DNA of 64,000 bases. Origin: Rubrivivax sp. (lineage in GTDB: Bacteria; Pseudomonadota; Gammaproteobacteria; Burkholderiales; Burkholderiaceae_C). The notes under the pieces are model-generated. The model did no database searches, was not told the DNA's origin, and saw nothing but the letters and a program-made list of their open reading frames with translations. The stretch spans positions 124,001 through 188,000 of the forward strand of contig JAIXSE010000034.1 in the NCBI GenBank assembly GCA_027484825.1, in the 5' to 3' direction. This document shows positions 38,771 through 41,311 of the stretch, piece after piece. Position 1 is the first letter of the stretch; the number at the start of each line of letters is the position of its first letter. A program made the translations under genes and the position numbers.

Positions 38771-39736
38771 GTGACCGACGCCCGCCCGAACACCGCCGAT
38801 GCGCAACCCAAATTGCTGCTGCTGATGCCAATGGCGCAGGAGCACCAGGCACAGTTGCGTCAGCGGTTTGACGTGATCGATGCACCCACACCGGCCCTGC
38901 GCGCCCAGGCCATTGCGCAGTGGGGCGCCAGCATCGAGGTGGTGCTGACCATCGGTGCCGTCGGTCTGCGCGGCGACGAAATCGCCGCCCTGCCGCGACT
39001 CGGCTTGGTGTGCGCGCTGGGAGCCGGCTACGAGAACATCGATGTGGCGGCGGCGAAGGCCCGCGGGATTGCGGTGGCCAATGGCGCCGGCACCAACGAC
39101 GCCTGCGTGGCGGATCATGCGATGGCGCTGCTGCTGGCCAGCGTGCGGGCGCTGCCCCAGCAGGAGCAGGCCCTGCGTGCCGGCGTCTGGCGCGATGCGC
39201 TGCCGCTGCGCCCCAGTGTGAATGGTCGTCGGCTGGGCATCCTGGGCCTGGGCACGATTGGCATGCGCATCGCGCGACGTGCGGCAGCCTTCGACATGGA
39301 CGTCGGTTATCACAACCGCCGTGCCCGTCCTGATGCACCGGCCTGCACCTATTTCGATTCCGTCCTGACGCTGGCCACCTGGGCCGACTTCCTGGTGGTC
39401 GCCGCACCGGGCGGGCCGGGCACTCGCCATATCGTCAATGCTGAGGTGCTGCGGGCCTTGGGGCCGCAAGGACATCTGGTCAATATCGCCCGCGGCAGCC
39501 TGGTGGATACGGCAGCCCTGGCCCAGGTGCTGGCTGACGGTCAGCTGGGCGGTGCGGCTCTGGACGTGTATGAGTCAGAGCCCCAACCGCCGCGCGAGCT
39601 GCTGGGCTTCCCGAATGTGATCCTCACGCCGCACATTGCCGGCTGGTCACCGGAGTCGGTGCAGGCGACGGTCGACCTGTTCCTGCTGAACGCCGAGCGC
39701 TGGAAGCACGGCCAGCCGCTGCAAACACCGGTGTGA
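38771..39736 (+). CDS. D-isomer-specific 2-hydroxyacid dehydrogenase
   Basis: 321 residues starting at GTG 38771, with GGGGA seven bases upstream. NAD(P)-binding motif G-L-G-T-I-G at about 158-163. The catalytic set is Arg in N-I-A-R-G-S-L-V-D, Glu in Y-E-S-E-P and His in T-P-H-I-A-G-W. The size fits glyoxylate/hydroxypyruvate reductase-like members. Whether it prefers NADH or NADPH cannot be told. It ends at 39736, beyond which the strand direction changes. Confidence 0.88.
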   Translation: MTDARPNTADAQPKLLLLMPMAQEHQAQLRQRFDVIDAPTPALRAQAIAQWGASIEVVLTIGAVGLRGDEIAALPRLGLVCALGAGYENIDVAAAKARGIAVANGAGTNDACVADHAMALLLASVRALPQQEQALRAGVWRDALPLRPSVNGRRLGILGLGTIGMRIARRAAAFDMDVGYHNRRARPDAPACTYFDSVLTLATWADFLVVAAPGGPGTRHIVNAEVLRALGPQGHLVNIARGSLVDTAALAQVLADGQLGGAALDVYESEPQPPRELLGFPNVILTPHIAGWSPESVQATVDLFLLNAERWKHGQPLQTPV

Positions 39737-39738
39737 TG

Positions 39739-39788
39739 GAAAAAAATATCCGCCCGGGAGGGCCGGCATCGGTTCGGGCACCGATGCC
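39739..39788 (-). terminator. Terminator-like structure for the minus-strand small gene
   Basis: GGCATCGGT (39765-39773) pairs perfectly with ACCGATGCC (39780-39788). Read on the minus strand, a second short GCCC/GGGC hairpin and then a run of seven Ts (39746-39740) follow. The T-run position fits termination of minus-strand transcription, that is of the small gene at 39853-39963. It may also serve the dehydrogenase from the other side. Confidence 0.45.
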
Positions 39789-39852
39789 AGACCGCTCCAG
39801 CAGGGCGGACCAAGGGGGTTTGAACTGAAAGGTCGTATCGCGGGGGCTGCGC

Positions 39853-39963
39853 TCAGCCCAGCACCCCGGTCACCAGACCCAGGCAGGACAGAACACCAAT
39901 GCCGAGCACCCATGCGTCCGCGTTGTTCAATGAAGACCAGACCCGTTGCTTGAGCACTTGCAT
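39853..39963 (-). CDS. 36-residue single-span membrane protein, candidate SOS-induced
   Basis: A small gene with ATG 39963 placed six bases after AGGAG; another ATG two codons upstream (39969) directly abuts the AGGAG and is less likely. The product starts M-Q-V-L-K-Q-R-V-W, positively charged at the N-terminus, and has a 20-residue hydrophobic helix from about residue 17 to the C-terminus (A-W-V-L-G-I-G-V-L onward), with the C-terminal L-G at residues 35-36. It is the only gene on the transcript that begins at the LexA-box promoter at 40102-40130. Size, topology and control match SOS-induced membrane peptides such as TisB or SidA, without sequence similarity that I can recognise. Translation is inferred from the ribosome binding site. 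Confidence 0.6.
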   Translation of the reverse strand: MQVLKQRVWSSLNNADAWVLGIGVLSCLGLVTGVLG

Positions 39964-40005
39964 TGCCATCTCCTGTTGCCAGACCCGTTGCCAGAATGCA
40001 ATGGC

Positions 40006-40044
40006 TCAGTGGGCGGACGGTGAAGAAGCGCTCAACTGATTCAT
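40006..40044 (-). other. 12-codon leader mini-ORF
   Basis: On the minus strand, M-N-Q-L-S-A-S-S-P-S-A-H then TGA, between the promoter and the small membrane-protein gene. No Shine-Dalgarno of quality is seen. It lies within the 70-base loop and 3' arm of the leader stem (40013-40092), so its translation, if any, would open that structure. It may be a regulatory leader or chance. Confidence 0.3.
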
Positions 40045-40092
40045 TGCGGTGGGGTGGGGGTGGCTTCGAACTCCCTCGTTGCCACCGTCCGC
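40013..40092 (-). promoter_or_regulatory. Long-range stem in the 5' leader of the small membrane-protein mRNA
   Basis: GCGGACGGTG (40092-40083 on the minus strand, three bases after the predicted transcript start) is exactly complementary to CACCGTCCGC (40022-40013). The 10-bp GC-rich stem would fold the first ~80 bases of the transcript, leaving the AGGAG at 39974-39970 outside it. Such leaders often tune translation of small toxins. Confidence 0.45.
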
Positions 40093-40101
40093 GATGAATC
40101 C

Positions 40102-40130
40102 AATGTACTGGATGGGCATACAGTAGTCAA
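40102..40130 (-). promoter_or_regulatory. Sigma-70-type promoter with LexA-like box in the spacer
   Basis: Minus strand: -35 TTGACT (40130-40125), a 17-bp spacer, -10 TACATT (40107-40102), predicted start near 40095. The spacer with its flanks reads TACTGTATGCCCATCCAGTA (40125-40106), with outer arms TACTG/CAGTA and the form CTGT-N8-CCAG, one mismatch from the proteobacterial LexA consensus CTGT-N8-ACAG. A repressor here would occlude RNA polymerase, as at classic SOS promoters. Confidence 0.6.
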
Positions 40131-40141
40131 CGGCTGTTGCA

Positions 40142-41311
40142 TCATGCCGTGGCAGCTGTGGTGGCGGTGTCCGTTTCCTGCGCGGGGCGGCGGGCGCCTT
40201 GGCGCTTGCCCAGCCACAGATACAGGCCGGAGCCCAGCACCAGGATGGTGGCGATGTCCAGCAACGCCCACAGCAGCTTCATCGGCATGCCGCCATAGTC
40301 CCCGAAATGCAGGGGCTGAGACACCAGCAGCGCAGTGAGGTACCAGGGCAGCTCCGGTGCGGCCGTCAACACGCCGGTCCGGGCATCCATCAGCAAGGGC
40401 GTGAGCAACTTGGACTTCAGCGGCGTGGCGCCCTTGAGGAACACCGTGTTGTGATGCGGGCTGGAGTAGGACGTCCCGGGGAAGGCGATGAACGACACCT
40501 TCATGCCGGCGGCGTGGCTCACCGCGTTGTCCAGTGCCAGCTGCAGGGAGCCGCGCTGCTCGACGGGTGTGACCGGCTCGTCTTTGTAGGGGGCGAGCAC
40601 CGTGGTGAGCTGGTCGTACTGCCAATACTTCACCAGCAGGTCGGCCCAGGTGTTGATCATGCCGGTCGCGCCCACCACAAAACACCAGACCAGCGTGACG
40701 ATGCCCAGCAAGTTGTGCAGGTCCAGCCACCGGACGCGAGTGGACCGGTCGCGGCGCACGGCGCCGAAGTCCAGCTTGCGCATGAACGGCGCGTACAGCA
40801 CCACGCCGCTGACCAGCGCCACCAGCAGCAGCAGCCCCATGAATCCGAGAAACAGCTTGCCCGGCAGGCCGGCGAACATGTCCACATGCAGGCGCAGCAT
40901 CAGGTCCATGAAGCCTTCGCCGACCTTGTAGTCGCCCACCACCTGCCCGGTGCGGCGGTCCACCGCCAGCGACTTGAAGTCGTTGGTCGGGGCCGGCGTC
41001 GGCGTCAGGGTGAACCACCACAGCCGGTCGTCGTCCTCATTCGGCCCGGCGAACTGGATGACACGGTCCGGATACTTCGCCTTGGCGGCAGCCGCCATCA
41101 CATCCAGGCTCACCGGCCCGCGCTGCGCCAGCACGGCCTGATCGCCGGTCAGCGTCGGCGCCTCGATCTCGTCGCCCAGCAGGTGGCTGATTTCATGATG
41201 GAAGATCAGCGGAAGCCCGGTCAGGCACAGCATCAGCATGAACAGCGTGCAGATCAGGCTGGTCCACTTGTGCACCCAGGTCCAGGCGCGAATGGCGGGG
41301 GCGCTCATCAT
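40142..41311 (-). CDS. PepSY-domain membrane protein (iron-regulated PiuB type)
   Basis: 389 residues with four to five membrane spans (about 13-38, 165-190, 215-240, 355-375) around periplasmic PepSY-like regions, and H-x-H-x-type histidines in L-H-V-D, L-D-L-H-N-L. This family is often found with TonB-dependent siderophore receptors and is thought to reduce or process ferric-siderophores in the membrane. Its start overlaps the 81-residue upstream gene by four bases. No receptor gene is in view. The substrate is unknown. Confidence 0.82.
   Translation of the reverse strand: MMSAPAIRAWTWVHKWTSLICTLFMLMLCLTGLPLIFHHEISHLLGDEIEAPTLTGDQAVLAQRGPVSLDVMAAAAKAKYPDRVIQFAGPNEDDDRLWWFTLTPTPAPTNDFKSLAVDRRTGQVVGDYKVGEGFMDLMLRLHVDMFAGLPGKLFLGFMGLLLLVALVSGVVLYAPFMRKLDFGAVRRDRSTRVRWLDLHNLLGIVTLVWCFVVGATGMINTWADLLVKYWQYDQLTTVLAPYKDEPVTPVEQRGSLQLALDNAVSHAAGMKVSFIAFPGTSYSSPHHNTVFLKGATPLKSKLLTPLLMDARTGVLTAAPELPWYLTALLVSQPLHFGDYGGMPMKLLWALLDIATILVLGSGLYLWLGKRQGARRPAQETDTATTAATA

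What the first reader, a model, noticed from the sequence alone, without database searches (positions are those of the whole stretch)
39853..40130. Candidate SOS-induced small membrane protein with LexA promoter and structured leader
On the minus strand: -35 TTGACT, 17-bp spacer, -10 TACATT, with TACTGTATGCCCATCCAGTA across the spacer. This has perfect outer arms and is one mismatch from the LexA consensus CTGT-N8-ACAG. About 130 bases downstream is a 36-codon gene with AGGAG at a six-base spacing and a terminator-like structure after it. The product has a basic N-terminus and one 20-residue hydrophobic helix. The leader folds by an exact 10-bp stem (40092-40083 with 40022-40013) and holds a 12-codon mini-ORF. 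This matches the layout of E. coli tisAB (SOS promoter, leader ORF, inhibitory leader structure, depolarising peptide) and, in control and topology, of Caulobacter sidA (division inhibitor), without recognisable sequence similarity to either. Such small genes are often missed by annotation.
Basis: partly seen in the sequence, partly recalled or inferred. Interest (0 to 1): 0.85.

Follow-up and report, generated by a model that had tools for sequence, protein, structure and literature searches.

The report
Conserved SOS-controlled one-helix membrane peptide
This is a very small, apparently undescribed membrane protein gene in Roseateles bacteria that sits behind a DNA-damage (LexA) switch, and protein and switch have been kept together in several related genera, which makes it a good candidate for the missing brake on cell division after DNA damage in these bacteria.

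Summary
The 36-codon frame at 39963-39853 (-) is a real gene: present in 15 of 16 genomes of the genus (Roseateles/Mitsuaria), dN/dS 0.13 over 14 orthologues. All 15 carry a LexA-type box in the promoter: 10 of 15 perfect CTGT-N8-ACAG, 5 of 15, the window's own among them, CTGT-N8-CCAG. Divergent relatives occur in seven more genera. In a blind test the peptide profile alone gave four new homologues, all with LexA boxes upstream (three perfect, one with two one-mismatch boxes), against 0 perfect boxes in 44 weaker hits examined. recA and imuA of the same genome carry perfect boxes. No Pfam, NCBIfam or PHROGs model reached its cut-off. Not supported: the tisAB-like leader (10-bp stem and 12-codon ORF), found in 1 of 15. 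The helix is uncharged with a conserved face, which fits binding a membrane partner better than a TisB-like pore. Best reading: a LexA-induced single-pass inhibitor, probably of the late divisome, like SidA, SosA and YneA. Induction and target are untested.

The parts
40125..40130 (-). -35 element TTGACT; TTG at the same spacing in 14 of 15 orthologues, one base further in L016
40108..40123 (-). LexA-type box CTGTATGCCCATCCAG between -35 and -10; perfect CTGT-N8-ACAG in 10 of 15 orthologues, CCAG variant in 5 of 15
40102..40107 (-). -10 element TACATT
39964..40101 (-). leader, of variable length and sequence between species; no conserved stem or ORF found
40006..40044 (-). 12-codon mini-ORF (MNQLSASSPSAH); this genome only, 1 of 15
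39970..39974 (-). Shine-Dalgarno AGGAG, six bases before the ATG
39853..39963 (-). gene for the 36-residue single-pass membrane protein MQVLKQRVWSSLNNADAWVLGIGVLSCLGLVTGVLG
   Evidence: (dN/dS 0.133)
39738..39809 (-). possible terminator (TCCGCCC ... GGGCGGA then T run), perhaps shared with the convergent dehydrogenase gene
   Evidence: sequence; not found by the simple scan
40142..41311 (-). upstream neighbour, PepSY_TM protein; not part of the unit
38771..39736 (+). convergent neighbour, D-isomer specific 2-hydroxyacid dehydrogenase; not part of the unit

Best explanation
A LexA-controlled stand-alone gene for a single-pass inner-membrane protein, N-terminus inside. Undamaged: LexA sits on the box between -35 and -10 and blocks RNA polymerase. 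DNA damage: RecA-driven LexA cleavage frees the promoter and the peptide is made. Its uncharged helix has a conserved face (W20, I24, G31, G35 in the 38-residue alignment numbering) that packs against a polytopic membrane partner. The most likely partner is the septal peptidoglycan synthase complex (FtsW/FtsI/FtsN), so that division waits until the DNA is repaired, the role SulA has in E. coli and SidA in Caulobacter. Shown here: gene, purifying selection, box conserved in the promoter, one hydrophobic helix, no SulA model hit in the genus. Inferred: actual LexA binding and induction, topology, partner, division block.
For: Gene and control conserved together: peptide in 15 of 16 genus genomes, 15 of 15 with the box in the promoter; relatives in 3 of 3 genomes of genus g45 with perfect boxes; four blind homologues in g51, g128 (two) and g30, three with a perfect box and one with two one-mismatch boxes, against 0 perfect and 4 one-mismatch in 44 weaker hits examined (Fisher 0.0002 for perfect boxes). 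Perfect boxes also precede this genome's recA and imuA. dN/dS 0.133. Helix without charges in 17 of 17 sequences; conservation lies on one face, shuffle p 0.008. N side net basic, C side neutral or acidic in 12 of 12. SulA (PF03846) at E <= 0.001 in 0 of 24 genomes of the bacterial family, 16 of them the genus. Precedent: SidA interacts with FtsW (PMC4211646, passages); YneA's helix binds TM7 of FtsW, and AlphaFold 3 models suggest the same for SosA, ChiZ and SidA, not with high confidence (PMC13396833, abstract and discussion).
Against: No expression, binding or phenotype data. No homology to a known division inhibitor was shown; SidA itself was not compared. The target is argued by analogy and by the missing SulA only. 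G008, a genus genome, has no detectable copy. The window's own box is one base off the consensus. Most sampled genera of the family gave no homologue (15 of 399 genomes at E <= 1e-5). One well conserved helix position, 37, lies off the conserved face. 13 of 28 weaker hits and 9 of 38 had no locus and were not checked for boxes.
Confidence: 0.5

Rival explanations
1. LexA-controlled membrane-depolarising peptide that works like TisB or DinQ: inserts, lowers proton-motive force, slows growth and favours tolerance of DNA-damaging drugs.
For: Small size, one hydrophobic helix and LexA control are shared with TisB and DinQ (TisB depolarisation: PMC11997105, passages; DinQ: PMC3567139, search listing).
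Against: No charge in the helix in 17 of 17 sequences, whereas TisB has several; no alignment to TisB; conserved one-sided face; no conserved inhibitory leader; no + strand promoter-like site in 39700-40200 and no Rfam family at gathering score.
Confidence: 0.2
2. LexA-controlled helper or inhibitor of another membrane machine (a protease such as FtsH, a transporter, respiration or cell-wall synthesis outside the septum), binding through the conserved face, with no direct role in division.
For: The conserved face argues for a protein partner but does not name it; the N- and C-terminal parts vary between genera and leave the helix as the common element.
Against: Several described SOS-induced single-pass proteins are division inhibitors, and these genomes lack a SulA model hit. 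Both are indirect.
Confidence: 0.22
3. Remnant of a prophage or other mobile element carrying a LexA-controlled peptide.
For: The identified flanks differ between genera.
Against: Present in 15 of 16 genus genomes, with dehydrogenase or PepSY_TM neighbours in several of them (window and L012 by Pfam, others by eye); no match of the window peptide in phages or of a type B relative in plasmids; no PHROGs match better than E 5 in 4 members.
Confidence: 0.03
4. Chance: a spurious frame behind a chance box.
For: One-mismatch boxes are not rare in this window.
Against: dN/dS 0.133 over 14 orthologues; box and peptide together in eight genera.
Confidence: 0.01

Closest known systems
SidA of Caulobacter crescentus
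   Same: SOS-induced, very short (29 residues), inner-membrane protein (PMC4211646, passages)
   Different: Another class of bacteria (recalled); sequence homology not tested here; no evidence yet that the Roseateles peptide binds FtsW/FtsN or blocks division
YneA, ChiZ, SosA (Gram-positive SOS division inhibitors)
   Same: SOS-induced small single-pass proteins (PMC13396833, discussion); the type B relatives also have a 20-40 residue tail predicted outside
   Different: No LysM or other Pfam domain at cut-off in 9 of 9 members scanned; the window's own peptide has almost no tail
TisB/IstR-1 of E. coli
   Same: LexA-controlled short hydrophobic peptide
   Different: No BLASTP alignment, no charged residues in the helix, no conserved structured leader or leader ORF, no sign of an antisense RNA
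SulA of E. coli
   Same: Possible role: SOS-induced block of division
   Different: SulA acts on FtsZ (PMC13396833, introduction); PF03846 found in 0 of 16 genus genomes

Membership tests
LexA regulon (SOS genes) | LexA box overlapping the promoter, of the kind before recA in the same genome | tested here: met
   10 of 15 perfect, 5 of 15 one mismatch, the window's own among the latter; recA and imuA boxes
LexA regulon (SOS genes) | LexA binding and RecA-dependent induction | not testable with these tools
   needs footprinting and expression data
TisB/IstR type I toxin-antitoxin | sequence similarity to TisB | tested here: not met
   window peptide only: no BLASTP alignment at E <= 100
TisB/IstR type I toxin-antitoxin | amphipathic helix with charged residues | tested here: not met
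   0 charged residues in 18 helix positions in 17 of 17 sequences; TisB has them
TisB/IstR type I toxin-antitoxin | inhibitory leader with a leader ORF, conserved | tested here: not met
   both arms and the 12-codon ORF in 1 of 15; other short GTG or ATG frames exist in 7 of 15 leaders but differ
TisB/IstR type I toxin-antitoxin | antisense RNA antitoxin | tested here: inconclusive
   no + strand promoter-like site in 39700-40200, no Rfam family at gathering score
SidA-type division inhibitor | very short single-pass membrane protein under LexA | tested here: met
   in silico only:
SidA-type division inhibitor | homology to SidA | not tested
   the SidA sequence was not fetched
SidA-type division inhibitor | binds FtsW/FtsN and blocks division | not testable with these tools
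   needs two-hybrid, overexpression, suppressors
YneA/ChiZ | extracytoplasmic LysM domain | tested here: not met
   no Pfam model at its cut-off in 9 of 9 members scanned
SulA | PF03846 match | tested here: not met
   no Pfam match for the peptide
PEP-CTERM sorting tags (superficial resemblance of the type B motif) | VPEP motif and basic end at the C-terminus of a long exported protein (recalled) | tested here: not met
   members are short stand-alone proteins with acidic or no tails; no Pfam match at cut-off; the PEP-CTERM-like weak hit L205 has no box

The most novel reading that the evidence does not exclude
A previously unrecognised, fast-evolving family of LexA-induced single-helix proteins (types A and B) is the SOS checkpoint that takes SulA's place in Burkholderiales of this family, acting through a conserved glycine-lined helix face on FtsW/FtsI, with genus-specific ends free to vary.
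Probability: 0.4. Interest if true: 0.75.

Novelty: new variant of a known kind. Interest (0 to 1): 0.66.

Why it matters
SOS-induced division blocks in bacteria without SulA are known from a few model organisms. A compact family whose switch is conserved in eight genera gives a directly testable candidate for the SOS division checkpoint in these Burkholderiales and a minimal natural helix for probing membrane partners such as FtsW. It also shows that box-first searching finds small genes that Pfam, NCBIfam and PHROGs do not hold.

Tried and rejected
TisAB-like leader: the exact 10-bp stem and the 12-codon ORF are together in one genome of 15; the predicted fold does not use the stem. Other small hairpins near the ribosome site (GGTGGC...GCCACC in the window's nearest relatives, also in the fold; GCAGCC-N5/6-GGCTGC in L011-L015) were seen by eye; covariation was not tested and they carry no weight here.

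Phage or plasmid origin: no match (one peptide per collection, a type B relative for plasmids and the window peptide for phages). Rfam: none at gathering score (one chance match at E 0.99). Solved structures: one irrelevant hit at E 0.49. Family libraries: chance-level rows only, best E 0.08 in Pfam (9 members), 0.017 in NCBIfam (9 members), 5 in PHROGs (4 members). AlphaFold gives one helix, pLDDT 82, pTM 0.34, which adds little; Foldseek against the viral library gave nothing.

First alignment was useless because 8 of 15 loci lay in the other orientation; I turned them and redid it.

Reach: two profile searches of 399 genomes of the order gave, beside the window's own, no hit better than E 0.003; as far as listed, most of those genomes lie outside the family. 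29 of the 38 weak places had a locus: 0 perfect and 3 one-mismatch boxes within 250 bases. Of the weak hits only L088 and L097 were checked, within. In one search, 15 of 28 weaker places had a locus: 0 perfect, 1 one-mismatch within 400 bases. Box-first scan: 37 places in 30 of 299 genomes, 30 loci examined; only one new member (L126) and three known ones stood behind them, so most such promoters serve other genes. In G008, the genus genome without a copy, no small hydrophobic frame stood behind the four box sites examined.

Literature: nine searches of the held library showed no title or abstract on such a peptide in Roseateles or its relatives; the listings were capped (15 of 217; 8 of 11; 10 of 43), and subscription papers are mostly not held, so this does not prove absence in print. 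PMC7739468 and PMC5343134 were only searched for terms and gave nothing.

Bias to note: G115, G098 and G022 were admitted knowing that they have boxes (G115 at E 0.008; G098 and G022 box-first), so they are left out of the blind count. The one-face p value includes them.

Full report
What is in the window. The window is part of a 5.66 Mb genome (G000, contig C33).

Is the gene real? tblastn with the 38-residue frame among 40 relatives found it in 15 of 16 genus genomes, 14 at E below 1e-14 and one (G007) at 4e-4; outside the genus only chance-level hits. A profile search gave the same 15 of 16, G008 without. Over the 14 close orthologues pS is 0.42 and pN 0.08, dN/dS 0.133; differences per codon position are 0.165, 0.038, 0.303. 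The ATG two codons upstream abuts the Shine-Dalgarno and is out of frame in one orthologue (L010), so the 36-codon start is preferred.

Is the LexA box real? In the window alone a one-mismatch box means nothing (11 seen, 20 expected by shuffling). But 15 of 15 orthologues have the box inside the promoter, 33 to 181 bases from just after the -10 to the frame: 10 of 15 perfect CTGT-N8-ACAG, and 5 of 15 (the window's genome, R. terrae, R. depolymerans, YR242 and G012) the identical CCAG variant. By the density a stretch of 250 bases would hold a box with at most one mismatch about 4% of the time (my arithmetic). The same genome has perfect boxes before recA (CTGTACAGATATACAG; Pfam and NCBIfam) and imuA (CTGTATGCCCATACAG; NCBIfam only).

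Relatives beyond the genus. The genus profile, run on 299 family genomes, found homologues in genus g45 at E 2.5e-7 to 1.6e-5, 3 of 3 genomes held, each with a perfect box in the promoter form TTGAATACTGTAT...ATACAGTATTCTTG. A hit at E 0.008 in G115 also had two perfect boxes. A box-first scan with TTGNNTACTGT-N8-ACAGTA (37 places in 30 of 299 family genomes, control columns zero in the listing) and a second one in 9 genomes showed two more small frames with the motif, in G098 and G022. With later members these define a second type: 64-81 residues, core (R/K/Q)DP(Q/N)xW(I/V)... with the two conserved glycines, followed by a 20-40 residue, net acidic tail.

Blind test. With profile A3 I searched 399 family genomes by peptide alone. 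Four genomes not yet known to hold it came up between E 4e-6 and 4.5e-10 (G065, G142, G236, G325; genera g51, g128 twice, g30). All four have LexA boxes 83-141 bases upstream of the matched stretch: three perfect (one pair of perfect boxes in G142; one perfect plus a one-mismatch box in G325) and in G236 two one-mismatch boxes. Of the weaker hits that I held as loci, 15 of 28 and 29 of 38, 0 of 44 has a perfect box and 4 of 44 a one-mismatch box; Fisher p is 0.0002 for perfect boxes and 0.0004 for any. The stretch searched was 400 bases and 250. In all, 25 genomes of 8 genera hold the family; in 399 genomes of the order, mostly outside the family as far as listed, none but the window's own was found. 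Most sampled genera of the family gave nothing, by absence or by divergence; the search has a capped first look and missed G022.

Anatomy of the protein. The helix from W20 to residue 37 (38-residue numbering) has no D, E, K, R or H in 17 of 17 sequences. W20, G31 and G35 are invariant and I24 is kept in 16 of 17; they lie within 60 degrees of one another on a helical wheel. Conservation has a moment at 100 degrees that 0.8% of shuffles reach, 0.9% without W; position 37, also well conserved, lies off that face. The N side is net basic in 12 of 12 and the C side neutral or acidic, so the N-terminus should be inside. AlphaFold gives one helix, residues 2-35. No Pfam, NCBIfam or PHROGs model reached its cut-off.

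Neighbours. In Roseateles the gene lies beside the dehydrogenase and/or PepSY_TM genes in the window and L012 by Pfam, and in others by eye. In six loci of other genera the neighbours scanned are MutS, a PPIC-type rotamase, MFS, LysR, ribose-5-phosphate isomerase, an RPE65-type protein and an M20 peptidase (L062, L198, L202, L203, L204, L199: five of these genera differ). Among the flanks identified no neighbour is shared across genera, which fits a stand-alone transcription unit.

The leader. The 10-bp stem and the 12-codon ORF occur together in 1 of 15 leaders; 7 of 15 leaders measure 33-37 bases and have no such ORF. The tisAB parallel in leader control therefore fails.

How it works, most likely. 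Shown: conserved gene, conserved LexA-type promoter, uncharged helix with a conserved face, no SulA model match in 24 of 24 genomes of the family, 16 of them the genus (4 of the 40 genomes searched, in other families, do match, and the control E. coli does). Inferred: LexA repression and damage induction; insertion N-in; binding of a polytopic partner. By analogy with SidA (FtsW; PMC4211646, passages) and YneA (TM7 of FtsW; PMC13396833, abstract and discussion) I favour a late-divisome target and a division delay. I put LexA-controlled expression of this protein at about 0.95, the division role at about 0.5.

Novelty. The kind (SOS-induced small single-pass protein) is known; this family, as far as the three libraries and nine capped paper searches show, is not described. 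I call it a new variant of a known kind.

Noticed in passing
G000:C35:132636 (L045/L046); G008 L169 and L184; G059 L254, G184 L255: A second small protein behind a perfect LexA box: MLLDLNDPKSIVAWWEVFPERHGPLL..., about 90-110 residues, two copies in G008; no Pfam or NCBIfam family for the copy tested.
   Followed up: partly
L185/L191 (G116, genus g102): A perfect LexA box followed by an unrelated 40-residue one-helix frame, MKTAALSHALPCWLFAGATTPLLVGLFAVALVLRRIWKWA, with a Shine-Dalgarno: perhaps a non-homologous counterpart; no Pfam match.
   Followed up: partly
40123-40108 in the window; L002-L006: The five genomes with the CCAG box variant keep it letter for letter and have longer leaders (68-181) than 7 of the 10 others; a weaker operator may be kept for a reason.
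   Followed up: no
L034 (G000:C12:105647): A LexA-like box lies before a frame that looks like a DNA cytosine methyltransferase; name by eye, not scanned.
   Followed up: no
L199, L202, L203, L204: Two LexA-type boxes 16-18 bases apart before several type B genes (both perfect in L199 and L202), suggesting tight repression.
   Followed up: no
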